Shown here piece after piece: positions 1-10,928 of a stretch of DNA of 45,711 nt. Made by a program: the position numbers and the translations under genes. Below the pieces are notes generated by a model. It saw only the letters and a program-made list of their open reading frames with translations. It did no database searches and had not been told where the DNA came from. The stretch comes from Gemmatimonadota bacterium (lineage in GTDB: Bacteria; Gemmatimonadota; Gemmatimonadetes; Longimicrobiales; Gaopeijiaceae), in assembly GCA_009844885.1 (NCBI GenBank), contig VYAQ01000001.1:1-45711 (forward strand). The letters are read 5' to 3'. Positions within the stretch are counted from its first letter, which is position 1, and each line of letters opens with the position of its first letter.

Positions 1-366
1 GGCAGCTCGCTTCGCTAAGAACAGGCGTCCGCTTGCGAGATGGATACTGAACGACGAAACGGGCGTCAGACTAGCCCGTGGGCACGGCCGTCCGGGACCC
101 GGCGGCGGTCGCCGCCGATGCGGTGGCGCAGCACTCCGGCGACGCCGTTCAACGAGCCTCGTGAAGCGTGGTCGGCAGTGGGACGGTGAAGACCGACGCC
201 GAATCGTATGCGCACCGTCGATGGTCAAGGGCACCGATCCGGGCGCGGCGGAGTGCATCAACCCGGACTACTTGCGACTCCCCCCGGGTGTCTCGCCTCG
301 GTGCTCGTGCTCGCCTTCACGGGGCGGGAACACTCTCCCGCATCGAGTCAGATGTTCGACCGAATC
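1..366. other. No convincing gene; region downstream of mcrC
   Basis: I see no gene I can support here. Several short open frames exist on the plus strand between 160 and 530, but they overlap one another and the 3' end of mcrC, have arginine/serine-rich GC-shadow composition, and show no domain. A short open stretch from GTG at 78 to a stop near 165 could be a degraded gene end but is too short to call. More of the restriction locus may lie beyond the left edge. Confidence 0.5.
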
Positions 367-1443
367 TTACCTGCCGAGGCGAGGGAAACTGCTGGATGGA
401 GGATCGAGAATGGTCAGCATCTCTCGGTGGATCTCCCGCCAGTCACGGTTTAGGTCCACCGTGCGCGCCTGGATGGGGAAGCCTTCCAATCGGATGCCGG
501 CCCTAACGCGCTCGCCGGACTGCGCATAAAGCAAGATGCCCTCGTGTTGCGGGCCGACCGGACGGCGTGCCTGGCGGTTGCGGAGGTAGGCCAGCAGCTG
601 GTAGAGGTGCCCTGAGTTGAGCTTTCCGCCCGGTAGCACCGTCGTGTAGAACTTCGTGTCCAAGATGATCCGGCGCTGTCGGGACTTGGATGTGAGGATC
701 ACATCGGCCTGCATGCCCGGGATCAATGCGCGGTTCGTTTCGGTCGTCCCTTCCGTGCCGCTCCAAGAGATGCGTCGGCCGCGCACGGTAAAATCGCGCC
801 GCTCGCGCTTGTAGAAGCCGATGACGAAGTCCTCGAACAGCTTCCACATCCCCTTGCCTCGCCGGAAGTCCCAGAAGACCGACTGGCCCCTCCGTTCATC
901 GACCCCGAGGCCCTCGTGGATCAACCAGCATACCGACAAGAGGAACCGGTAGAGCCGTCGGTTGCCGCCCGCAAGCTGCACGCGGGTGAAGGCGCTACGC
1001 GTCAGCCGCAGCGACGATACGCCCGGCATCCTACGATAAGCGGATCGAACCGTACTTCGTACGTCAGGAGCTAGGTCGGTGTGAGACGTGTCTTGCAATA
1101 GCCTGCGCAGAGAAGCCCGCAGGATGCGGTTCCGGAGGATATCCGCCGACAGCTCCTCGAAGTCGCATGCCGCCCGCGCCCGCGCCTTAAGCGCCCGCTT
1201 GACGGTGTCGCCCACCACCAGCTTTCCACGTATCCCTGCCAGATCTTCGCGGCGCTCCAGATACCCGCGGTCCATTCCCCGGCGAACGAGGTGGTTGACG
1301 CCCCCGGCGAGCACCTTGCCGAGCAGGTCGTAGACCGTCGATAGGTCAGCCAGCGCCTCAAGGCGGGCCGTGTCGCGCTCTTGAACGTGACCCCACGCAT
1401 AGCAGAGCATGTAGTAGATGTTGAGGATGGGAATGCTCGTCAT
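367..1443 (-). CDS. mcrC: McrC-like nuclease subunit of a modification-dependent restriction system
   Basis: This is the predicted nuclease partner of the McrB-type GTPase encoded immediately upstream. McrC proteins stimulate McrB GTP hydrolysis and cut DNA at modified cytosines (family knowledge). From ATG 1443 the product is about 358 aa. It opens with the typical IPILNIYYMLCYAW segment (McrC proteins usually begin with a very similar NIYYML-YAW string), and its C-terminal third carries a PD-(D/E)XK nuclease core: MQADVIL, then IILDTKFY, followed by a QLLAYL helix. I chose ATG 1443 because it has GGAAG six bases upstream and gives the usual N-terminus. An ATG at 1509 would overlap mcrB by 14 bases but lacks a ribosome site. 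It is probably co-transcribed with mcrB. Confidence 0.88.
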   Translation of the reverse strand: MTSIPILNIYYMLCYAWGHVQERDTARLEALADLSTVYDLLGKVLAGGVNHLVRRGMDRGYLERREDLAGIRGKLVVGDTVKRALKARARAACDFEELSADILRNRILRASLRRLLQDTSHTDLAPDVRSTVRSAYRRMPGVSSLRLTRSAFTRVQLAGGNRRLYRFLLSVCWLIHEGLGVDERRGQSVFWDFRRGKGMWKLFEDFVIGFYKRERRDFTVRGRRISWSGTEGTTETNRALIPGMQADVILTSKSRQRRIILDTKFYTTVLPGGKLNSGHLYQLLAYLRNRQARRPVGPQHEGILLYAQSGERVRAGIRLEGFPIQARTVDLNRDWREIHREMLTILDPPSSSFPRLGR

Positions 1444-1495
1444 GGCCGCTTCCGACCCCGTGGCGGGCTCCCTGTTGCCCCTGACCCGCTTGGGA

Positions 1496-3721
1496 TCATC
1501 CACCGTCATTCGGCTTGGAGTTTTCCTTCAGCCGGTCCAGCGCGCTGTCGATCTTTTCCTGAGAGTCGAACCAGTACTCCGCGAGTAGCGGCTCAATCTG
1601 CGTGTCCACCACGGCTTGGTACCAAGTCTCATCGCGGGTGGCGTCCTTGTCGGTGGGCACGAAATAGCTATGCCCAACCCGAAAGCCGCGGCCCAGTTCG
1701 GGATCATTCGCGATCTCCTCATTGAGTTCGGCCATGCGTTCGATGATCCGGGTCACGAGTTCGCCAGTGACGCCCTGACCTTCGAGAAAATCCCGGAACG
1801 CCTTCTTCCCGTGTTCGGTGCCGTAGGCCGGGTTGAGAGTCGCGAAGGCAAACCTCCGGCGGAGAGCGTAGTCCACCAGAGCCAGCGACCGGTCGGCGGT
1901 ATTCATCATCCCCAGGATGTAGACGTTGTCGGGAATGTAGAACCGTTCGTCCGACGGGTCGGCGTAGGTCAGCGAAACAGCATACTCCTCGCTGCGCTTG
2001 TCGGCTTCGATCAGCATGAGGAGTTCGCCGAAGATGCGTGACAGGTTGCCCCGGTTGATCTCGTCGATGATGAAGACGTGCGGAATCTCGGGGTCCCGCC
2101 GCGCTCGCTCGCAGAAGCGGTGGAAGACCCCGTCCCTCAGTTTGAATCCGCCGCTCTCGGTGGGTCGGTATCCCTGGACGAAGTCCTCGTAAGCGTAGGA
2201 CTGGTGGAACTGCACCATCTCAATGGGTGCCGAATCCTTGCGTTCGATCAGGCACCACGCGATGCGGTGTGCCATGAAAGTCTTCCCGGTGCCGGGAGGA
2301 CCCTGGAGGATGAGGTTTCGGCGGGTCCTCATGAGGTGGAGAAATCGCTCGAAGTCGCGACACGGGATAAAGAGGTCCTTACAGGCTTCGGTGGATGTGT
2401 AGCCATCGGACTCCGGATGAGCCCCCTCGCCGTTCGGCAGGGGAACTGGATGACCGATGAGCCACAGGTACAGCCGCGCCCAATGTCGATACCGGGAGAA
2501 ACCGGTCAGCCGCTTCTTGGCCCAGTCGCCGCCCCAGTAGGGTTGCAACGGCATCTCCTGCTTGCAGGGATGCCATTCCACGGCTCGGGTATGAACACGA
2601 AACCCGCTCGCGCCGGGATCGTAGCGGTACTCGCCGGTAATCCGGCCCCAGCCGAGCAGGTAGCTTCCTCCCTTCCGGGTCGCGATCACGAGGTCCCCGA
2701 CTTCCATCCCGTTCGCGAAATCCCGCAGGAATCTGACCCTGTTGGACGGGTTCTCGCCGAAGCCTCGGCCGACCAAATCCTGCTTGATCTCATCCGAGGA
2801 CCTCCGCAGATCGCTGACGTTGTCCCAACCTATCGACGCGATCCCGTCCTCGACGACGCCGGGCCACATGCGCTCTCCGGACACGTTCATGTTCATCAAC
2901 CACCAGTCCCGGTTCCCAAACCGGTCCCGGAACCACGAGTCGGCCTTCTCGTCATCCCAGAACTCGCGGTACGGTGGGTGGTAGAAGTGGACCTCCCGGT
3001 CATCGGACACGGCTTCCAAAGCGCGCCGGATGTCGAGAATCGATTTGTCGATGGCGACCCGTGGCCTATCGTCGTCGCCAGCGTGCGTGTCGCCGAGGCG
3101 GATGATCTTCTTCTTGTGTCCGCCCGAAACGATCGGCTCGAACTTCTCCGGGAAGAGCAGGAAGAGCATGGCGTGCCGGAACATGCTGCCCTGGGCGAAC
3201 TCGGTATCGTCCAACCACGATGCGAAGTCCCAAGGACTTTCCAGAAGGGATTCACGGTTGTTTCGCTCCAGCGAACTCCATTTGGCCATGCGGTCCGCAA
3301 AGAATAGGATCTCCGTCCGGACCCTCATGTGGTATCCTTGGCCCGCGTGGACCACGCCCGCTCCGAGCAGCGTGTCGCTCAGCAGCGCATGATCTTCCTC
3401 AAACGCTCTCCCCGATCTCTTCCACCAGTAGCCGATATCCTCTCGCTTCTTCGCTGGACCCATGTTTTTCCGGTGCTGGATCAAGCGGTATACCCATACC
3501 ATTTCGGAACGAAGGCATTTGGCGTCCGCCGAGGCGCGTTCCAGCCCACTGCGAACGTCGTCCACCGACTGGGCTTCGGCGTGAACCTTTCGCACTTCCT
3601 GGAAGATTGGTCCAGTCCATAAGGGCCGGTTCGCGAATAGCGACTTCTCGCCCACGAGGCACCGCTGCTTCCAGCGTTCGGCGGCGGCCAAGATGGGCTC
3701 AGCGTCTTGGAAACGGCTCAA
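1496..3721 (-). CDS. mcrB: McrB-like AAA+ GTPase with EVE-like modified-base reader
   Basis: Predicted motor and sensor subunit of a type IV restriction system, about 741 aa. The C-terminal AAA+ domain has Walker A GPPGTGKT (residues about 474-481), Walker B FIIDEINRGN (D553-E554) and the MMNTADRSLALVDYALRRRF sensor/arginine-finger block (NTAD being the McrB GTPase signature). The middle of the protein, starting at WWLMNMNV and running through ASIGWDNVSDL, GDLVIATRKGGSYLLGWG and the R-AVEW strand, resembles the EVE/YTH-type domain that reads modified bases in McrB homologues. The N-terminal 230 residues are not recognised. Only TTG starts are available; TTG 3721 has GGGAG seven bases upstream, while TTG 3727 is too close to it. 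mcrC follows in the same direction. Confidence 0.88.
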   Translation of the reverse strand: MSRFQDAEPILAAAERWKQRCLVGEKSLFANRPLWTGPIFQEVRKVHAEAQSVDDVRSGLERASADAKCLRSEMVWVYRLIQHRKNMGPAKKREDIGYWWKRSGRAFEEDHALLSDTLLGAGVVHAGQGYHMRVRTEILFFADRMAKWSSLERNNRESLLESPWDFASWLDDTEFAQGSMFRHAMLFLLFPEKFEPIVSGGHKKKIIRLGDTHAGDDDRPRVAIDKSILDIRRALEAVSDDREVHFYHPPYREFWDDEKADSWFRDRFGNRDWWLMNMNVSGERMWPGVVEDGIASIGWDNVSDLRRSSDEIKQDLVGRGFGENPSNRVRFLRDFANGMEVGDLVIATRKGGSYLLGWGRITGEYRYDPGASGFRVHTRAVEWHPCKQEMPLQPYWGGDWAKKRLTGFSRYRHWARLYLWLIGHPVPLPNGEGAHPESDGYTSTEACKDLFIPCRDFERFLHLMRTRRNLILQGPPGTGKTFMAHRIAWCLIERKDSAPIEMVQFHQSYAYEDFVQGYRPTESGGFKLRDGVFHRFCERARRDPEIPHVFIIDEINRGNLSRIFGELLMLIEADKRSEEYAVSLTYADPSDERFYIPDNVYILGMMNTADRSLALVDYALRRRFAFATLNPAYGTEHGKKAFRDFLEGQGVTGELVTRIIERMAELNEEIANDPELGRGFRVGHSYFVPTDKDATRDETWYQAVVDTQIEPLLAEYWFDSQEKIDSALDRLKENSKPNDGG

Positions 3722-3779
3722 TGGCAAGCTCCCGTCAGCCTTGGAATCGGAGTGCTCGGATGCGAGATAGCGGTGGGAA

Positions 3780-3809
3780 ACGATAAGGCGATTGCTGGCT
3801 TGCGATCAA
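3780..3809 (-). promoter_or_regulatory. Candidate sigma-70-like promoter of mcrBC
   Basis: On the minus strand, TTGATC (3809-3804) and TATCGT (3785-3780) lie 18 bases apart, about 60 bases upstream of the mcrB TTG start. The hexamers match the bacterial consensus only moderately. No operator is evident. Confidence 0.3.
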
Positions 3810-4067
3810 CCGGATCGTGTCTATCGAAGGAGCCAGCCCCCCTTTTCCCTCAGTAAGTCTGTGCCACGCCTCCGAGCCCAGGGACACAGCGTCCTAGAGG
3901 CTTGAAGAGGCCGCAGTGGAAAGGGCCGTGAGGGAAAGCGATTCCCGCGAATTGAGGCGATTTCCCCGCCGTTTTCGGCCAACGGGAGCCGATGAGATTC
4001 AAGGGCAGAGAACGCAGATCGTGCAGCCCTGTATGTAGTTAGACGATCCTCTGCCCGGATTCTGGCC
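3810..4067. other. Intergenic stretch between mcrB and the STN gene
   Basis: Together with the mcrB leader this gap is about 345 bases. A 91-codon open frame on the minus strand (4096 to 3821) overlaps the end of the STN gene, lacks a ribosome site and resembles no family, so I do not call it. The stretch is where the rest of a TonB receptor would be expected after the STN domain. No receptor plug or barrel sequence is recognisable in any frame, so if a receptor was lost, the loss was clean. Confidence 0.5.
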
Positions 4068-4508
4068 TCAGCTGCTCCGCCCGTCGGGCGGGGCAAGGTC
4101 GCTGCCGGCCCTGGGGACCACGACCACCTGGGAGCCGAGTTCGACGTAGCCGAGGTCCGTATCGGCCAGGAGCCGGTCGAGGGCGCGCGCCAGGTTCAGC
4201 GTCGTGCAGTCGCAGTTGACGCGGAGGTCGCCGGGTAGAAGACTCGGGCTGAAGGCGATCTGGACGTTCGACTGCTCGGCGAGCCGCGCGAGGGCCTCCG
4301 CCAGCGGCGCCTGCTCGATGGAGAGCATGGAGATGGTCGCCAGCAGGGTGCCGGGCGCGGGGTCCACGCCGGTTTCGCCCCGGAGCGCGGCCAGCACCTG
4401 GCTGTCCTGCGCGGAGAGCGCTGCGGGGAGCAGGACGGTGGCGGCGAGCGACCGCCCGATTATCCGTGCGCCCCGCAGGAATCGGGTGCCCCGCCGTCGC
4501 GGGCTCAC
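4068..4508 (-). CDS. STN-domain-only exported protein (truncated TonB-receptor N-terminus)
   Basis: The product is about 146 aa: a signal peptide (basic N-region, SLAATVLLPAALSAQ) followed by one secretin/TonB short N-terminal (STN) domain, ending just after VVVPRAG. The STN domain closely matches that of the full receptor encoded at 8142-10853, including NVQIAFS, SLLP, CDCTTL, LADTDLGY and ELGSQVVVVPRAG, and the DNA is also similar. The receptor continues into a carboxypeptidase-like domain, plug and barrel; here the frame stops within 15 codons. The GTG start at 4508 overlaps the FecR stop (GTGA), so translation is coupled. A 15-base palindrome (CCGCCCG-T-CGGGCGG, 4077-4091) lies in the last codons. 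It is either a functional periplasmic STN signalling protein or a deletion remnant of a receptor gene. Confidence 0.75.
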   Translation of the reverse strand: MSPRRRGTRFLRGARIIGRSLAATVLLPAALSAQDSQVLAALRGETGVDPAPGTLLATISMLSIEQAPLAEALARLAEQSNVQIAFSPSLLPGDLRVNCDCTTLNLARALDRLLADTDLGYVELGSQVVVVPRAGSDLAPPDGRSS

Positions 4509-5572
4509 GAGGCCGCTCCGCGATCGGCGGACTCGATCCTCACAACCCCTGCATCGATGCTGCAGCGGGCGTCGATCACGCTGCACACGACCGTCATGAC
4601 TTCCGACAGCGATTTCGAGTCGAACCACATGGTGAGCGTCTGGTTCGTGAGCCTGTCGTCGCTGACCACCACATCGGTGCCGTAGCGTGCTTCGACCTCT
4701 TCCATCGCCACGCCCAGCGGGGTGTCGTGGAAGATCAGGAAGCCGTCCAGCCAGTCGGCCATGCTCCCGGTGGGCGCGGCCGCCGCGACCGGCTCGGGCA
4801 GCCCGCGCAGCAGCCTCGTGGCCTGGCCCGCGCCGACCTGCACTTCATGGTCCGGACCGGCGAGAGCGACGCGGCCCTCGATGACCGCGACGGACAGCTC
4901 TGCCGCATCCACGGCCAGATGGAAGCGCGTCCCGAGCACCTGGGCCGTCCCGGCATCCGTCACCACGCGAAACGGCCGGGCCGGGTCGCTGGTAACGGCG
5001 AAGAAGGCCTCGCCGTCGAGCGTCACCTCGCGAGCGGCTCCCTCCGGGAAGTTCGTGGGCCAGGCCGTGGCCAGGCGGCTGTCGGGGCCGAGGCGGATCA
5101 CGCTGCCGTCACCGAGCCGCACCATCTCGGTCTCGCCGGGGCCGGTCGTGAATTCACGGGTCGCGGCCGTCGTGCCCGCGGGGCCGCTGTCGCGGCCCAA
5201 ACCGGCGATGACTTGCCATACTCCCACGCCCACCACCGCGACCACCGCCGCGGCTACCAGGTCGAACCGGCCACGCCGCGGGCGCAGGACCCTGAGCTGC
5301 CGCCCGAACCGCGCCACGCCCGGCCCCGCCGCGCCGGCCTGCCGCGCCTCCGCCCTCCAGATCACGTCCTCTGCGGCCGGCGCCGCGCCGGGCACGATGC
5401 GGCGGTCCGCGATGCGGCCCGCCTCGACGACGCGGCCCAACTCGGCCAGGGTGCGTTGGCGTTCCGGCCGGCTGCTCGCCCCTTCGTCGTCTGCCCCCAG
5501 CCACTTGTCGACCGCCGTGTCTTCCTCTTCCGTGGTCTGCTTGCGCAGATGCCGGAGCAACAATTCGTCCAT
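4505..5572 (-). CDS. FecR-family anti-sigma/signal-transducing membrane protein
   Basis: Inner-membrane regulator that, in FecI/FecR systems, relays a signal from a receptor STN domain to the ECF sigma factor. From ATG 5572 it is about 355 aa. An N-terminal cytoplasmic segment (MDELLLRHLRKQTTEEE through a helical region) is followed by one membrane helix (FDLVAAAVVAVVGVGVWQVIAG). A periplasmic FecR domain follows (GETEMVRLGDGSVIRLGPDSRL, REVTLDGEAFFAVTSDPARPFRVVT, VLGTRFHL), then a C-terminal STN-like/DUF4974-type segment (FLIFHDTPLGVAMEEVEARYGTDV). ATG 5572 has GGGAGG upstream; ATG 5590 overlaps the sigma stop but has a weaker site. A longer open frame reaching 6259 is only shadow over the sigma gene. 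Confidence 0.88.
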   Translation of the reverse strand: MDELLLRHLRKQTTEEEDTAVDKWLGADDEGASSRPERQRTLAELGRVVEAGRIADRRIVPGAAPAAEDVIWRAEARQAGAAGPGVARFGRQLRVLRPRRGRFDLVAAAVVAVVGVGVWQVIAGLGRDSGPAGTTAATREFTTGPGETEMVRLGDGSVIRLGPDSRLATAWPTNFPEGAAREVTLDGEAFFAVTSDPARPFRVVTDAGTAQVLGTRFHLAVDAAELSVAVIEGRVALAGPDHEVQVGAGQATRLLRGLPEPVAAAAPTGSMADWLDGFLIFHDTPLGVAMEEVEARYGTDVVVSDDRLTNQTLTMWFDSKSLSEVMTVVCSVIDARCSIDAGVVRIESADRGAAS

Positions 5573-5586
5573 TCGGTCCTCCCTGG

Positions 5587-6222
5587 TCATCCTGACTCGC
5601 CCTGGTCGCCCCGAGTCGCACTGACCGCCTGCCGCACCCTTCGCAAAGCGGCGCTCATCTGGTTCGCCACCGTCTGCGCCGAGATGTCCAGCACCGACGC
5701 GGCCTCCGCGTGGCTGAGCCCCCGCTGGAAGACGAGCTCGAACACATCGCGCCGGCGCCGCGGCAACGATGCGACGGCGGCCTCGAACGCATCCGCCAGC
5801 ACCTTTGCGTCGAACTCCTCGGCGGGTGTCGCGGGCCGCGGAGCGTCGCGGTGCTGTTGGCCTTCCGCCCACCGCCGCCGCACGCCCTGCTTCCGCTTCT
5901 CGTCGATCACGAGGTGCCGCACGATCCGGTACAGGTACGCGCGCGCGGAGCCCCGCGGCCGCCAACCCCGCCTCCGTTCCCACACTTGGATGAACGCTTC
6001 CTGAACGACATCGCGGGCAAGGTCCACGTCGCCCAACTGCCGCGCCGCATAGCGCACGAGGTCCTCCCAGCAGAGGTCCATGAGGCGACCGAGCGCCCGG
6101 GACGACCCGCCCCTTATCGCGGCCATGAGGCCATCGAGCCGGGCGTCGCCGGTGGCCAGCCGTTCGTCTTCTGTGGCCGGCCGGGGGTCGTCGGTTTCTC
6201 GCATCAGTTGCAGGCTTTGCAT
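5587..6222 (-). CDS. ECF RNA polymerase sigma factor, FecI-like
   Basis: Sigma-70 family extracytoplasmic-function factor of about 211 aa from ATG 6222. Region 2 is visible as LARDVVQEAFIQVWERR and YLYRIVRHLVIDEKRK. Region 4 is AVASLPRRRRDVFELVFQRGLSHAEAASVLDISAQTVANQM, a helix-turn-helix. It heads a three-gene minus-strand cluster (sigma, FecR, STN protein) with stop/start overlaps. The frame remains open to 6327, but the conserved leader element at 6230-6292 lies in that extension and is shared with a different gene, so translation probably begins after it. Its likely targets are its own promoter and the TonB receptor promoter at 10866-10928 (inference). Confidence 0.88.
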   Translation of the reverse strand: MQSLQLMRETDDPRPATEDERLATGDARLDGLMAAIRGGSSRALGRLMDLCWEDLVRYAARQLGDVDLARDVVQEAFIQVWERRRGWRPRGSARAYLYRIVRHLVIDEKRKQGVRRRWAEGQQHRDAPRPATPAEEFDAKVLADAFEAAVASLPRRRRDVFELVFQRGLSHAEAASVLDISAQTVANQMSAALRRVRQAVSATRGDQGESG

Positions 6223-6229
6223 CGACTCC

Positions 6230-6292
6230 GCATTCGGTCTCGTCCTGACACTTACACAAAGGAAGCGGATGAGGGGCGCCGTACTACCATGG
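6230..6292 (-). promoter_or_regulatory. Conserved 63-nt leader/promoter element, copy 1 (sigma gene)
   Basis: This stretch aligns without gaps to 10866-10928, with 48 of 63 positions identical by my count. On the minus strand the conserved parts are CCATGGTAGT, GCGC, ATCCGCTTC, then TTG-Y-GTAAG and AGACCGA. It ends 8 bases before the sigma start codon. Its reading frame relative to the downstream gene differs between the two copies, so it is conserved as DNA or RNA rather than as protein. Probably a shared promoter and 5' leader. Confidence 0.65.
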
Positions 6293-6333
6293 ACGGGCCA
6301 CAGACAGGTCTTGGCGGACATGGACAATAAGCA

Positions 6334-6365
6334 TTATCATGATTCATGAAATATTCTAATGATAA
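6334..6365 (+). promoter_or_regulatory. AT-rich palindromic operator over the vapB-type start
   Basis: A sharp AT-rich patch in GC-rich surroundings. It contains two overlapping perfect palindromes, ATCATGAT (6336-6343) and TTCATGAA (6343-6350, which includes the start codon), enclosed by an inverted repeat TTATCAT (6334-6340) / ATGATAA (6359-6365). RHH antitoxins commonly bind such repeats to repress their own operon, so this is a likely autoregulatory operator. Confidence 0.55.
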
Positions 6366-6675
6366 GTCGGCCGGGCGGCGTGTCGCGGAGCCCGTCCAGG
6401 TCTACCTGCGCCCGCCCGAACGGGATCGCCTGGAACGGCTGACAGCGAAGCTCGACACGACCAAATCCGATGTTCTGCGACGGGGCCTGGAGGCTCTGGA
6501 AGGTCAGTTGTCGGATCCGGAGCGCCACCCGGTGCTGGGAATCATCGGGATGGTGTCGACGGCCCACGCCCCGGGGATCGACGTCGCGCGGTCGCATGAC
6601 GAGTACCTGGCGGCCATGGAGGCGGCTTCCTGGTCCAGTCGGCGGCGCGTGCGCGGCGGGCGCGGTTCGGAGTGA
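6346..6675 (+). CDS. Ribbon-helix-helix antitoxin (VapB-type)
   Basis: A 109-aa protein with a ribbon-helix-helix signature near its N-terminus: PVQVYLRPPERDRLERLTAKLDTTKSDVLRRGLEAL. This is a beta strand followed by two helices, as in CopG/Arc-type antitoxins. The C-terminal half lacks a recognisable fold and probably neutralises the PIN toxin encoded next. The stop overlaps the toxin start by 4 bases (GTGA at 6672-6675), so the two are translationally coupled. The start codon lies inside the palindromic operator and has no clear Shine-Dalgarno site, which suggests a short or nearly leaderless transcript. Confidence 0.82.
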   Translation: MKYSNDKSAGRRVAEPVQVYLRPPERDRLERLTAKLDTTKSDVLRRGLEALEGQLSDPERHPVLGIIGMVSTAHAPGIDVARSHDEYLAAMEAASWSSRRRVRGGRGSE

Positions 6676-7088
6676 AGGGCCTCTTCATGGACACCAGCGC
6701 GTGGTACCCCCTCGCCGACCGCGGTCATCCGGATCATGCCGAGCTGGCCCGAACTCTGCGGGAGCGTGTGCGCCGCGGCGCGCGGATCGTGACCACCAAT
6801 GTCGTCGTGGGCGAGACTCACGCTCTGCTGCTTCGTCGTGCGGGACGGGCGGCCGCGCTCGCCTTCGTGGAAGCGGTCCGCCGGCCACCGAACCGGGTCG
6901 AGTACATCACCGCTGAGCGCGAGGAGGAAGCGATCGGCCGGTGGCTCGAGCGGTTCGCCGATCAGCGGTTCTCCCTCGTCGATGCCTGCAGCTTCGCGGT
7001 GATGAGCGAGCTGGGCATCCGGGAGGCGCTGACCCTCGACCGCCACTTTGCGGTTGCGGGTTTCGTGGTTTTGCCGGCGCAGGGCTGA
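6672..7088 (+). CDS. vapC: PIN-domain ribonuclease toxin (VapC-type)
   Basis: A 138-aa PIN-domain protein. The four acidic residues expected for the Mg-dependent RNase site are present: D7 in MDTSAWY, E48 in VVVGETHALL, D104 in SLVDACSFAVM and D123 in LTLDRHF. Length and order match VapC toxins, which cut specific tRNAs or rRNA. The GTG start overlaps the antitoxin stop. The pair lies between the sigma cluster and the convergent TonB-receptor locus and may be a mobile or stabilising insertion there. Confidence 0.9.
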   Translation: MKGLFMDTSAWYPLADRGHPDHAELARTLRERVRRGARIVTTNVVVGETHALLLRRAGRAAALAFVEAVRRPPNRVEYITAEREEEAIGRWLERFADQRFSLVDACSFAVMSELGIREALTLDRHFAVAGFVVLPAQG

Positions 7089-7106
7089 GCCCTCCCGAGA
7101 AGGAGG
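7081..7106. terminator. Inverted repeats between convergent vapC and lipoprotein gene
   Basis: Two short palindromes follow each other: AGGGCT-G-AGCCCT (7081-7093, covering the vapC stop) and CCTCC/GGAGG with a 6-base loop (7091-7106). There is no T-tract. They may end transcription from either side, but this is weak evidence. Confidence 0.3.
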
Positions 7107-7146
7107 CAGATCCGCGGGGTGAAGAAGTAACCGCGCGTCAGCGACC

Positions 7147-8142
7147 TCACCCGCCCCCGCAAAGCGGCGGATGCCCGGCACTCCCCGCTTCCGCCACGAC
7201 GGCCAGCCGCCGTTGCGTAGCCGTGGCGAAGGCGCCGGTGCCATCGCCGAACACCGACGGAATGCGGATCTCGCCCGAGGGGTTGAAGTTCCCTCCACGC
7301 ACCCAGTTGGTCCAGTTGCGGTCCGTGGCCACGATCGAGACCGAGGCCCGCGTCCCTTCCGGCATTCCCCCCTGCAGCTCGCGGATCGCGTCGGCGTCGT
7401 CGTCTTCGGTGAAGATGCTGAACAGCGTGAAGTCCCGGGGGAACACGATCTCGGTGTCTTCGCGTCCGATGGCCAGTCCCAGGAGGTCGAGCGAGTCCGG
7501 CGACTCGATGTCGCGCGCGCTCAGGGCGTCGGCGAGTCCATTGATCCGCGCGTTCGCCAGGTAGGCCCAGGCATCCGCCACCGGCGCCCACCTCAGGTTC
7601 AGGTTGGTGTCCGGCTGCAGGCGGCAGACCCCGTCCTCCCCGGTCACGCCTTCGAACGCGAGGGGGCCGGGCACGCGACTCGACGACGTAAGAACCCGTC
7701 CATCCGCGGCCACGACTTCAAGCTCCAGCAGTTCGCCGGGCGCAAAGGGCGAGGGAGCGACCCGGGCCCGGTAGCAGGTGCCGGCGTGAATGGGTTCGAC
7801 CACGATGGTGTCTCCCTCCGGGGTCAGGTCAAAAAGGCCCCAGTCGATGCACTTCGTCGCGCTGTCCTGCTCCATGAGGAGCACGTCCGTCCCCGAGGCC
7901 CCCGTCACGCGCACCGTTGCGCCGTCCACGCGGGGATCCCTGGAGTAGTCGAATGTCCGGTGCAGGTAGGCGTAGGCGTCGAGCGTGGGGTCTTCACCGG
8001 CTTCCTCCAGATCGAGGACCACGAAGGTCTCGGCGATGATGACGTCTTCGGCCGCAGTGATCACGACTTCCGTGAGCTCGCAGCCGAGCACGGACGCGCC
8101 GGCAAGCAGCGCTACAACCCGGGAGGCAGACGGGCGGGCCAT
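7147..8142 (-). CDS. TonB-receptor partner lipoprotein, DUF4249-like
   Basis: About 331 aa. It starts with a lipoprotein signal peptide (MARPSASRVVALLAGASVLGC, lipobox LGC) and continues with beta-rich sequence. The segment VDGATVRVTGASGTDVLL, then GTCYRARVAPSPFAPGELLELEV, matches the layout of DUF4249-type proteins that accompany outer-membrane receptors. Its ATG overlaps the receptor stop by one base (TGATG), so the pair is coupled and likely forms a surface complex. Substrate unknown. The DUF4249 assignment rests on layout and context rather than on a diagnostic motif. Confidence 0.72.
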   Translation of the reverse strand: MARPSASRVVALLAGASVLGCELTEVVITAAEDVIIAETFVVLDLEEAGEDPTLDAYAYLHRTFDYSRDPRVDGATVRVTGASGTDVLLMEQDSATKCIDWGLFDLTPEGDTIVVEPIHAGTCYRARVAPSPFAPGELLELEVVAADGRVLTSSSRVPGPLAFEGVTGEDGVCRLQPDTNLNLRWAPVADAWAYLANARINGLADALSARDIESPDSLDLLGLAIGREDTEIVFPRDFTLFSIFTEDDDADAIRELQGGMPEGTRASVSIVATDRNWTNWVRGGNFNPSGEIRIPSVFGDGTGAFATATQRRLAVVAEAGSAGHPPLCGGG

Positions 8143-10853
8143 CAGAACGACACCTCCAGCCCGATCGTGGGCAGGATCGGGATCATCGAGATGCCGCTGC
8201 GACGGGGCTCGCTGCGGTCGAACTCGAAGAAGTAGAACAGGACGTTCTTGTGGTTGTACACGTTGATCACGCTCAGGTAGGGCGTAAGCGTTCCCCAGCC
8301 GCGCACGATGGTCTTCCGCAGCGACGCGTCCAGCCGATGCCGGGCCGGATAGCGCTCGGCGTTGCGCGGGCCGAGGACGACGGCACTCTCCCACTCCGGG
8401 TCCAGCACCCCGTCGAGCGGGCGCGGGTTGTAGACCTCGTAGGCGCCCAGCGGCCTGGTGTACGGCAGCCCGGTGCCGAAGTTGGCCCTGAGTCCGGCCT
8501 CCAGTCCCCACCAGTCCAGGGTGCGGCGCAACACCAGATCGACATCGAGACGCCGGTCGAAGACGGGCGGATAGGTGATGTCGGGCGGGGGGTCGGTGCC
8601 GTACCGCGTGTCGGGGAAGGTGCGGTCGGTCTTGAGGAAGGAGATCGAGATCCAGCCGGTCGTGCGTCCCAGATCGCGTCGCACGAACAGATCCGCACCG
8701 TAGGCGCGGCCGCGGCCGGAGACCAGGTCGTCAAGGGGATCGTTGGGGTCTTCCGCGGCGTTCTGGGTGATCACCCCGTTAAAGGTGCGGTAGTAGCCCT
8801 CGAGCGAAGCGAACCACGCGTCATCGGGGCCGAAGAAACTCTCCACGCCGAGCTGCGCCTGATCGGAGATGACGTGCGGCGCCTCCGCCCCGGCCAGCAC
8901 CCAGATGTCGAGCCCGAAGGGGAACTCCTCGTCGCGCAGCGAGTGCAGGAACTGCGAGTAGCGCCCGGCCGAGAAGCGCACGGCCGAGCCGCGGTTGCGA
9001 AAGAACCACTTGGCGGCCAAACGCGGGGAAACCGTCGTGCTGACCGGTGGCCCCGCACCGCCGGCGTCCTGGTCCTGCTCGTTGGCGGGTCGCCAGTGGT
9101 CTGCCCTCAGCCCCCCCTCGAACAGCCACCGCGGCCCGGGTTCCCAGTAGATCTGGCTGTAGGCGGTCAGCTCGATTCCGCTGCCCGCGCCCCCGAAGAA
9201 CGTGGTGCCGCCGGCCCGGGCAGCGTTCTCGTAGTCGCGGTCGTTGGCGGCCAGACCGGACTTCCAGCGCAGGCCGGGCGAGGGGCGACGTTCCAGGTCG
9301 GCCTGGAGGGTCGCGCGCTGGATCCGGGTGTCGAACTCGGCCTCGAAGTCGGTGAAGGCGAAGTCGGAGAAGAAGCGGGAGAACGCAGCACGTACGGACA
9401 TTGACCCACCGCCACGCATGGGGTTGACCCACGACCCGCCGATCGCGTCGTTGCCCCACGCCCACGAGACGGGGAGCGAGAAGTCGTCGATTTCCGACAG
9501 GTCGATGATATCGCGCCCGCTGTAGCCGGTGATGCGGATGCGGTTGCCACCCTTCGTCCAGCCCTCGAAGACGCCCTGAAAGTCGGACAGGTGGTAGGGG
9601 AAGTCGGCCCATGGCTTCAGCAGGACATCGAAGTAGGACCGGCGGCCCGACAGGCGCCATCGCGTGTTCGCGAACCCCAGCACCTCCTCGGCGGCGCCGG
9701 GGAGCGCGCCGTCGACGGCAACCCGCGACGCCAGCAGGCTCACGCCCGCGTCCACGCTGGTCACCCCGTCGCCCGCGTCGGTCTCCACCGTCAAAACCGA
9801 CGAAACGCGGCCGCCGTACTCCGCGGGAAAGCCGCCGGCACGGAGCTCGGCCCGGGCGACCATGTCGGCATTGAAAACCGAGAACAGGTTGCCAAGGTGG
9901 AAGGGATTATAGATCGGAATGTCATCCAGCAGGATCAGGTTCTGGTCCGCCGACCCTCCCCTCACGTTGAACGCGGCCGAAAAGTCGGACACCGTGGTCA
10001 CGCCCGGAAGCACCTCGACCGCCCTGAGCGGATCGCTCTCCGCAATCCCCGGAATCGCCTTGAGTTCATCGCGCCCGATGTCCTGAACCGTGATCCCGGC
10101 GGTCTCTTCGAAGCGCGCGCGGGTCCGGCTGCGCTGGGCCTCGACCACCACGCCCTCGAGCTGCAGCGCATCGGTGCGCATCACGATCTCGATCTCGGCC
10201 GCATCCACGGCCCCCGCCTCGACGTCCTGCCTGTGGTCGGCAAAGCCGATGCGCACGATCGAGAGTACGTAGGGCCCCGGCGGCAGGCCGGTGAACGTGA
10301 AGAAGCCGAGATCGTCGGTCTGCGCGAACCGGACCCGGGTGGAATCCGCCGCCGGCAAGAGGCTGGCCACCGCTCCGGACACGGGGACGCCGTCCTCGGA
10401 CCAGACCCGGCCGCTGATCGCGCCCTGCCGCGCGGGATCGCCGCCCGCCCTGGGGACGACGACGACCTGCGATCCCAGTTCGAGGTATCCGAGGTCCGTA
10501 TCGGCCAGGAGCCGGTCAAGCGTCCGGGCCAGACTTAGCGTCGTGCAGTCGCATTCGACGCCCATGTCGGTAGGGAGGAGGCTGGAACTGAATGCTATCT
10601 GGACGTTCGACCGCTCGGCGAGCCGCACCAGGGCTTCGCCGAGCGGCGTCTTCTCAATGGACAGCTGGGAGATGGTGGCCAGTAGGGTACCGGCGTCAGC
10701 ATCAACACCGATTTCCCCTCTCAACGCGGCCAGCACCTGGGCGTCCTGCGCGGAGAGCGCCGCTGGCATGGGTGTGAGGAGCACGATGGCAAGCGCGCCA
10801 GAACAACCGCACCACCGTGCCGGCTTCAACATCCGATTCTCCCAGGCCTCCAT
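8142..10853 (-). CDS. TonB-dependent outer-membrane receptor with STN domain
   Basis: About 903 aa from ATG 10853. A signal peptide ends at ALSAQ (near residue 36). An STN domain follows (about 55-135), then a carboxypeptidase-like regulatory domain (GAISGRVWSEDGVPVSGA onward, about 144-225). The TonB plug follows (PLRAVEVLPGVTTVSDFSAAFNVRGG and LLDDIPIYNPFHLGNLFSVFNADM, ending PAEYGGRVSSVL), then a long barrel ending in an aromatic residue (GLEVSF). The STN domain marks it as a transducer receptor that can talk to FecR. ATG 10832 (LKPARW) is a good alternative start, with GGGAG upstream. The gene carries the second copy of the 63-nt leader shared with the ECF sigma gene and is coupled to the downstream lipoprotein. 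Ligand unknown. Confidence 0.92.
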   Translation of the reverse strand: MEAWENRMLKPARWCGCSGALAIVLLTPMPAALSAQDAQVLAALRGEIGVDADAGTLLATISQLSIEKTPLGEALVRLAERSNVQIAFSSSLLPTDMGVECDCTTLSLARTLDRLLADTDLGYLELGSQVVVVPRAGGDPARQGAISGRVWSEDGVPVSGAVASLLPAADSTRVRFAQTDDLGFFTFTGLPPGPYVLSIVRIGFADHRQDVEAGAVDAAEIEIVMRTDALQLEGVVVEAQRSRTRARFEETAGITVQDIGRDELKAIPGIAESDPLRAVEVLPGVTTVSDFSAAFNVRGGSADQNLILLDDIPIYNPFHLGNLFSVFNADMVARAELRAGGFPAEYGGRVSSVLTVETDAGDGVTSVDAGVSLLASRVAVDGALPGAAEEVLGFANTRWRLSGRRSYFDVLLKPWADFPYHLSDFQGVFEGWTKGGNRIRITGYSGRDIIDLSEIDDFSLPVSWAWGNDAIGGSWVNPMRGGGSMSVRAAFSRFFSDFAFTDFEAEFDTRIQRATLQADLERRPSPGLRWKSGLAANDRDYENAARAGGTTFFGGAGSGIELTAYSQIYWEPGPRWLFEGGLRADHWRPANEQDQDAGGAGPPVSTTVSPRLAAKWFFRNRGSAVRFSAGRYSQFLHSLRDEEFPFGLDIWVLAGAEAPHVISDQAQLGVESFFGPDDAWFASLEGYYRTFNGVITQNAAEDPNDPLDDLVSGRGRAYGADLFVRRDLGRTTGWISISFLKTDRTFPDTRYGTDPPPDITYPPVFDRRLDVDLVLRRTLDWWGLEAGLRANFGTGLPYTRPLGAYEVYNPRPLDGVLDPEWESAVVLGPRNAERYPARHRLDASLRKTIVRGWGTLTPYLSVINVYNHKNVLFYFFEFDRSEPRRSGISMIPILPTIGLEVSF

Positions 10854-10865
10854 CCTGTTTGCCTC

Positions 10866-10928
10866 GCACTCGGTCTGATCCGGGCGCTTACGCAAGAGAA
10901 GCGGATAGGTGGCGCTCCACTACCATGG
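10866..10928 (-). promoter_or_regulatory. Conserved 63-nt leader/promoter element, copy 2 (TonB receptor)
   Basis: Ungapped match to 6230-6292 (48 of 63 identical). It ends 13 bases before the receptor ATG and fills most of the gap between the DUF5916 gene and the receptor. Same strand and same relation to the start codon as copy 1. This supports control of receptor and sigma gene by one factor, probably the ECF sigma. Confidence 0.65.

What the first reader, a model, noticed from the sequence alone, without database searches (positions are those of the whole stretch)
4068..10928. Split surface-signalling module: sigma, FecR and a free STN protein that may control a receptor 2 kb away
In FecI/FecR/FecA systems the STN domain is the N-terminus of the receptor. 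Here the gene after fecR encodes only a signal peptide and STN domain, coupled by a GTGA overlap, while a near-identical STN domain sits on a complete receptor at 8142-10853 that shares a leader with the sigma gene. One FecR could therefore be contacted by two STN domains, one fixed and soluble, one ligand-controlled. A free STN protein could act as a constitutive signal, a decoy or a dominant modulator. The alternative is a decaying duplicate.
Basis: partly seen in the sequence, partly recalled or inferred. Interest (0 to 1): 0.7.

Follow-up and report, generated by a model that had tools for sequence, protein, structure and literature searches.

The report
Signalling receptor split by mobile element
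The odd small signalling gene is the front end of a surface-receptor gene that a mobile DNA element cut in two; the other half lies elsewhere in the same genome, so this is most likely a recent gene disruption and not an evolved free-standing regulator.

Summary
Window 4068-4508(-) encodes a signal peptide plus a complete STN domain, coupled by GTGA to fecR, behind an ECF sigma gene. A second STN (76% identical) sits on a full receptor (TBDR_B, 8142-10853).

The cause differs from both readings offered. In the nearest relative (G026), sigma-fecR is followed by a full receptor, and homology to the window stops at 4081. The missing body is in the window's own genome, on contig C278 (88% identical to G026's), right after a tyrosine-recombinase gene. 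Both broken ends share a 13-bp direct repeat; the joined flanks read open for 907 aa. Window 1-4091 (McrBC cargo) and C278 carry the left and right ends of a dispersed integrative-element family whose close copies sit at DNA encoding "PPDG". So the gene is a receptor split by an integrative element, recently: dN/dS of the mature STN and severed body is still 0.11 and 0.18.

TBDR_B does look linked to this sigma factor: of three matches to TRGTAG-N16-CGCTT in 4.9 Mb, two are the sigma and TBDR_B leaders. Published work on free signalling domains suggests the STN fragment, if made, would brake signalling. The two contigs are not physically joined.

The parts
5587..6204 (-). ECF sigma factor
   Evidence: Pfam Sigma70_r2 and r4_2; 91% identical to the G026 orthologue over 169 aa, 88% over the whole
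4505..5590 (-). FecR-type anti-sigma regulator; ATGA overlap with sigma, GTGA overlap with the STN fragment
   Evidence: Pfam FecR and FecR_C; overlaps read
4068..4508 (-). STN-only gene: front part (signal peptide + STN) of receptor A, ending 3 codons past the repeat, inside the inserted element
   Evidence: Pfam STN; 90% identical to the N-terminus of the full G026 receptor; homology ends at 4081
4079..4091 (-). 13-bp direct repeat CCGCCCGACGGGC, second copy at the receptor-body junction on contig C278
   Evidence: junction sequences; the 12-bp core occurs once in the window
4000..4091 (-). conserved left end of a dispersed integrative-element family (similarity in some copies reaches about 3930)
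   Evidence: query 3729-4110 matched in 22 of 23 same-genus genomes, 20 matches in the own genome including itself, most listed ones within its first 180 bases; aligned ends
1496..3727 (-). McrB-like AAA NTPase, element cargo
   Evidence: Pfam AAA_5; lies between the element's left end and the contig end
367..1509 (-). McrC-like subunit, element cargo
   Evidence: Pfam McrBC PF10117
6263..6289 (-). promoter-like element TGGTAG-N16-CGCTT before sigma
10899..10925 (-). same promoter-like element before receptor TBDR_B
8142..10853 (-). TBDR_B: complete TonB-dependent receptor with its own STN domain
   Evidence: CarboxypepD_reg, Plug, barrel; STN at 10431-10835 by similarity to STN-only
7147..8145 (-). 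lipoprotein-like partner of TBDR_B
   Evidence: overlaps TBDR_B; a homologue follows the receptor in 7 of the 12 relatives' loci mapped (L032-L038); no Pfam family
6346..7088 (+). antitoxin-like and PIN-domain gene pair next to sigma, present at the same place in G026
   Evidence: PIN domain; both 88% identical in L032

Best explanation
The STN-only gene is the 5' part of a full cell-surface-signalling receptor (receptor A) interrupted by an integrative element. A tyrosine recombinase inserted the element at a 13-bp site, CCGCCCGACGGGC, in the linker between the STN domain and the receptor body. The left part of the element, carrying McrBC, is window 1-4091; its integrase and right end, followed by the receptor body and its lipoprotein partner, are on contig C278. 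Shown: homology breakpoint, both halves, direct repeats, element ends repeated elsewhere, open joined frame. Inferred: that the two contigs are the two ends of one insertion, and that it can excise. Consequences, inferred: the severed body has no signal peptide that I can see, so receptor A is lost; TBDR_B, which has its own STN and the sigma-type promoter element, is then the only intact STN receptor of this kind in the genome. If the STN fragment is made and exported, it should bind the STN-like end of FecR and hold the sigma factor off, as free signalling domains do in Pseudomonas.
For: G026 has sigma-fecR-full receptor A with the same antitoxin/PIN neighbours. DNA homology window/G026 runs 4081-7089 at 88% in one alignment and stops at 4081. 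The own genome holds body A on C278, 88% identical to G026's; the next matches are 58% and 55%. C278 has a recombinase gene directly before the body, Pfam Phage_integrase. The 13-bp repeat is at both junctions and the joined flanks read 907 aa. The left end is a repeat family in 22 of 23 same-genus genomes; the integrase family is in 50 of 121 family genomes, 16 matches in the own genome. Of 18 distinct integrase loci held at 83% identity or more (C278 included), 15 carry the core CGTCCG[CT]CNGACGG after the gene, 2 carry it inverted and 1 a variant; 0 of 32 less similar loci carry it. 7 of 8 complete copies examined have 10-12 bp direct repeats, with 4.2-5.6 kb from left end to integrase end. 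STN and body diverged from G026 at dN/dS like that of sigma and fecR. Free signalling domain blocks signalling by protecting the anti-sigma factor: PMC11637429, Discussion part 1.
Against: The two contigs are not joined: at least the integrase N-terminus (about 140 aa) is missing between them, and window 1-420 shows no integrase. MAG with 4.89% contamination. The GACGGGCGG core stands at the boundary in only 4 of 17 left-end loci printed (19 given), the others presumably being other subfamilies or older copies. One candidate pair (L114) proved not to be one element; L162 showed no convincing repeat. The brake function is by analogy; no interaction was tested.
Confidence: 0.9

Rival explanations
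1. An evolved free-standing STN protein that modulates FecR (constitutive signal, decoy or dominant modulator), kept by selection as a separate short gene.
For: Signal peptide-like start and complete STN fold; translational coupling to fecR; low dN/dS of the mature STN versus G026, 0.113.
Against: Its end falls exactly at an integrase-element boundary. No other sigma-fecR-STN-only triad was found. The severed body also shows low dN/dS (0.175), so purifying selection reflects recency, not a new role.
Confidence: 0.04
2. Decaying remnant of a duplicated receptor: TBDR_B and the STN-only gene are tandem duplicates and the latter lost its body by deletion.
For: Two related STN domains about 6 kb apart; tandem STN receptors occur in G022, G030 and G024; G030 has a third, body-less STN copy, with no listed left-end match on that contig.
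Against: The lost body is found on C278 next to an integrase. TBDR_B's body is of another receptor type: 33 other full-length places at 63-75% identity, none coinciding with an STN match.
Confidence: 0.03
3. Assembly or binning artefact: sequences were wrongly joined at a repetitive element end.
For: The element family is highly repeated and several contigs end near its integrase.
Against: The junction at 4091 lies inside contig C34, with McrBC on one side and fecR-STN on the other; the mirror junction on C278 has the same repeat and the right frame. A strain mixture with and without the element would still mean a real insertion.
Confidence: 0.03

Closest known systems
FecI/FecR/FecA-type cell-surface signalling (FoxI/FoxR/FoxA, PupI/PupR/PupB)
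   Same: ECF sigma, FecR with FecR_C domain, receptor with N-terminal STN, plug and barrel; STN model resembles FpvA, PupB, FoxA and FecA signalling domains
   Different: Receptor A is cut between STN and body; the intact STN receptor TBDR_B is encoded separately, 1.9 kb upstream of sigma, behind its own copy of the promoter-like element
Overproduced free FoxA signalling domain (PMC11637429; passages, and first of two parts of the Discussion)
   Same: A signalling domain without barrel
   Different: There a laboratory construct; here a natural truncation, with no expression or interaction data
Integrative genomic islands that split a protein-coding gene, e.g. those in dusA (PMC4482086, search listing only) and GInts (PMC5385486, abstract, opening text and outline)
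   Same: Tyrosine recombinase at one end, variable cargo, flanking direct repeats; for dusA an intragenic site
   Different: About 4-6 kb, one recombinase seen, many copies per genome, close copies inserted at DNA encoding P-P-D-G in different genes; ginABCD operon not looked for

Membership tests
FecI/FecR/FecA-type cell-surface signalling | ECF sigma adjacent to FecR | tested here: met
   ATGA overlap
FecI/FecR/FecA-type cell-surface signalling | Receptor with N-terminal STN, plug and barrel | tested here: met
   TBDR_B; receptor A only as two halves
FecI/FecR/FecA-type cell-surface signalling | Receptor gene under control of the cognate sigma | tested here: inconclusive
   Shared TRGTAG-N16-CGCTT: 3 matches in own genome, 2 at the leaders; reversed control pattern gives 10. 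Spacing kept in 12 of 12 relatives' sigma leaders aligned, second box exact in 8 (read by eye)
FecI/FecR/FecA-type cell-surface signalling | STN binds FecR and controls its proteolysis | not testable with these tools
   no interaction data
Tyrosine-recombinase integrative element | Tyrosine recombinase gene at one end | tested here: met
   PF00589 on C278; N-terminus beyond the contig end
Tyrosine-recombinase integrative element | Direct repeats at both junctions and an uninterrupted site in a relative | tested here: met
   13 bp at both; G026 intact with CCGCCTGACGG
Tyrosine-recombinase integrative element | Same ends found at other loci with other flanks | tested here: met
Tyrosine-recombinase integrative element | Both ends on one contiguous sequence | tested here: inconclusive
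   In this copy the ends lie on C34 and C278, with an unassembled gap, so its filing rests on inference; met for 7 other copies
Tyrosine-recombinase integrative element | Excision and circular form | not testable with these tools
   needs reads or PCR
Stable free-standing STN regulator | Short gene conserved as such in relatives | tested here: not met
   No other sigma-fecR-STN-only triad among the short frames inspected; 62 STN-bearing genomes of 154

The most novel reading that the evidence does not exclude
A mobile element acts as a switch on cell-surface signalling: while integrated it turns a receptor into a soluble STN brake that keeps FecR protected and the sigma factor off, also silencing the co-regulated receptor TBDR_B; on excision the 907-aa receptor and signalling return. 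Both halves being undamaged fits reversible use, but equally a recent insertion.
Probability: 0.1. Interest if true: 0.75.

Novelty: new variant of a known kind. Interest (0 to 1): 0.42.

Why it matters
It shows that a tempting 'free signalling domain' can be produced in one step by an integrative element, and leaves a natural version of the free-signalling-domain experiment. It also exposes a large element family in these bacteria that carries McrBC in this copy and, in the close copies, uses a DNA site encoding a short protein motif (PPDG), so it can land in different genes, a surface receptor among them.

Tried and rejected
Assembly chimera at the STN repeat: rejected because the two STN domains are only 76% identical and the junction has defined element ends on both contigs. 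Remnant of body A in window 3728-4068: none found; homology stops at 4081. Integrase N-terminus in window 1-420: none; partial repeats of that stretch in the own genome did not bridge to an integrase. L114 as a complete copy: its left end has no core and does not pair. McrB as bridge: the fetched stretches around McrB relatives in G027 and G017 (L193, L194) lack these element ends; own contig C54 (L195) has a left end and, about 10 kb on, a McrB-like piece at its contig end, with no integrase. Short open frames in the order survey: L147, L148, L149 and L151 run off contig ends, L166 has an assembly gap and L167 a frameshift; L040 (G057) ends with its contig. PDB sequence search with the STN alignment: no hit; the fold search worked. 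Plasmid search with the STN protein: no match. PADLOC gave nothing for the McrC-like protein and only REase_II, PDC-S02 and other partial matches for the McrB-like one. A first leader alignment was spoiled by wrong slicing and was redone. Paper searches for a free STN protein, for an element in a TonB-dependent receptor gene, for intragenic integrative elements, for mobile elements in sponge Gemmatimonadota and for overproduced signalling domains showed no earlier description of this case in the listings; only listings were seen except for the two papers named, so this is no proof of absence.

Full report
What is there. On the minus strand, sigma (5587-6204), fecR (4505-5590) and a 146-codon STN-only gene (4068-4508) overlap by ATGA and GTGA. 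Pfam confirms the ECF sigma, FecR with FecR_C, and STN. The STN model has all elements of the fold (mean pLDDT 67, about 76-86 over the domain) and its PDB matches, E from 7.7e-4 upward, include the FpvA, PupB, FoxA and FecA signalling domains. The receptor TBDR_B (8142-10853) is complete. A search of the own genome with the STN-only protein finds two places: the short gene and TBDR_B, 76% identical.

Relatives. That several of these sets come from sponges is my recollection of their isolate names. In the family, 47 of 121 genomes match the STN; of the 22 other same-genus genomes 16 match and 6 do not. Of the 12 relatives' loci mapped, 11 have sigma and FecR, and in all 11 an STN-bearing receptor follows (L040 runs off its contig; L041 looks frameshifted after the STN); the twelfth, L042, is a short contig. 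DNA homology between the window and G026 runs in one alignment from 7089 down to 4081 and then stops.

The missing half. Searching the own genome with G026's receptor body found it on contig C278, 88% identical over 760 residues, against 58% for TBDR_B and 55% for a receptor on C85. C278 (4322 bases) reads: recombinase C-terminal 244 residues, about 90 bases, receptor body, lipoprotein. The recombinase matches Phage_integrase and has R, HxxR, W and Y positions as I recall them for tyrosine recombinases (stretches located). The junction sequences share CCGCCCGACGGGC. Joining the two flanks at the core gives one open frame of 907 residues. In the split state the body can start at an ATG inside the element, without a signal peptide that I can see.

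The element. The sequence just inside the window junction is a dispersed repeat: window 3729-4110 matches in 22 of 23 same-genus genomes, 20 matches in the own genome including itself, most listed ones lying within 3930-4091 (only the 30 best candidates per genome were scored, and a few matches lie elsewhere in the query). The recombinase family occurs in 50 of 121 family genomes, 16 matches in the own genome including itself (22 candidates scored). The sequence after the recombinase was printed for 29 loci. Of the 18 distinct loci held with a recombinase at least 83% identical, C278 included, 15 carry CGTCCG[CT]CNGACGG where they diverge, 2 (L092, L107) carry the core inverted and 1 (L152) has CCGCCGGACGGG after other letters; none of 32 less similar loci has it. 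In the 12 distinct loci given to the core reads P-P-D-G-R or P-S-D-G-R into an open frame of 62-469 residues (700 in a longer stretch of one of them). Pfam on ten of these flanks gives two beta-propeller-type matches below their cut-offs (DUF5128, cytochrome D1), TPR, amidohydrolase and PIN, and nothing for five. Eight candidate complete copies were examined: seven have 10-12 bp direct repeats at both ends, with 4.2-5.6 kb from left end to integrase end. Two of them (L161, L163) sit in a frame that looks like mobC by eye, and L160 has similar flanks. In the window the McrBC genes lie inside the left end, which makes them cargo; 4.1 kb of window plus 0.8 kb of C278 plus the missing integrase part fits the size range. 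The cored left end is seen in 4 of 17 other left-end loci printed. Receptor A in G026 has the core as CCGCCTGACGG, whereas G019, G015 and G013 have GATGG there, so the site is not present throughout the genus.

Age and selection. Between the window genome and G026, dN/dS is 0.183 (sigma), 0.255 (fecR), 0.233 (STN gene), 0.113 (STN without its first 35 codons), 0.175 (severed body) and 0.245 (lipoprotein). Amino-acid changes that could be polarised, window branch versus G026 branch, are 3 and 2 in sigma, 9 and 5 in fecR, 2 and 2 in STN, 12 and 10 in the body.

The second receptor. The best match to TBDR_B's body outside this genome is a 75% identical body in G017 (8 candidates scored per genome in most). 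By my count of that list, 33 other full-length places match at 63-75%, including one in the own genome (C85), plus one fragment in G052; none coincides with an STN place. TBDR_B thus looks like a normally STN-less receptor type that carries an STN and a sigma-type leader. The leader alignment of 12 relatives' sigma genes shows TRGTAG and a second box 16 bases on (CGCTT in 8, one-base variants in 4; read by eye). In the own genome the pattern occurs three times, twice at the sigma and TBDR_B leaders; the reversed pattern occurs ten times, so the number is not enriched, but the placement is telling. The third site (C332) was not assigned to a gene.

Mechanism. [quoted passage not shown] abstract and passages, and Discussion part 1 of 2). 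If the STN fragment is exported, it would compete with the TBDR_B STN for FecR and act as a brake. This is inference from homologues; the fragment may equally be unstable and silent.

Survey for free STN genes. In the order, 62 of 154 genomes match the STN alignment. I inspected seven short-frame places and G030's: besides the window, only G030:C114 (a third copy after two receptors) and G082:C128 (upstream of its sigma gene) have their own stop without a contig end, gap or frameshift; G003's is spread over two frames. Neither is a sigma-fecR-STN-only triad. Places with long frames were judged by frame length alone.

Limits. The window contig and C278 are linked by inference; the element interior between them is not assembled. 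Everything is sequence analysis, mostly of MAGs.

Noticed in passing
L150 3661-6376 (G082:C128): An STN-only frame with its own stop lies upstream of sigma, FecR and another STN-bearing frame; it may be a genuine free STN gene or another remnant.
   Followed up: partly
L039 10560-11150 (G030:C114): A third, body-less STN copy follows two STN receptors; no element end was listed on that contig.
   Followed up: partly
L041 7204-9798 (G033, single-contig genome): The receptor after FecR appears frameshifted: STN and body pieces lie in different frames.
   Followed up: no
L011, L013-L017, L022 (genus g2): STN-like N-termini continue into a body that does not begin like the usual receptor body; several of these genomes also have a normal STN receptor nearby.
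   Followed up: no
window 7104-7133: A 30-base piece like the 3' part of the DUF5916 gene lies between the PIN gene and the TBDR_B partner; with the inverted order relative to G026 it suggests a local rearrangement.
   Followed up: no
L160, L161, L163: Another subfamily of the element has CCACCGGGCG or CCACTTGGCG direct repeats and, in L161 and L163, sits within a MobC-like frame.
   Followed up: partly
window 8142-10853: TBDR_B is the only receptor of its body type seen with an STN match, suggesting capture of leader and STN by an STN-less receptor.
   Followed up: partly
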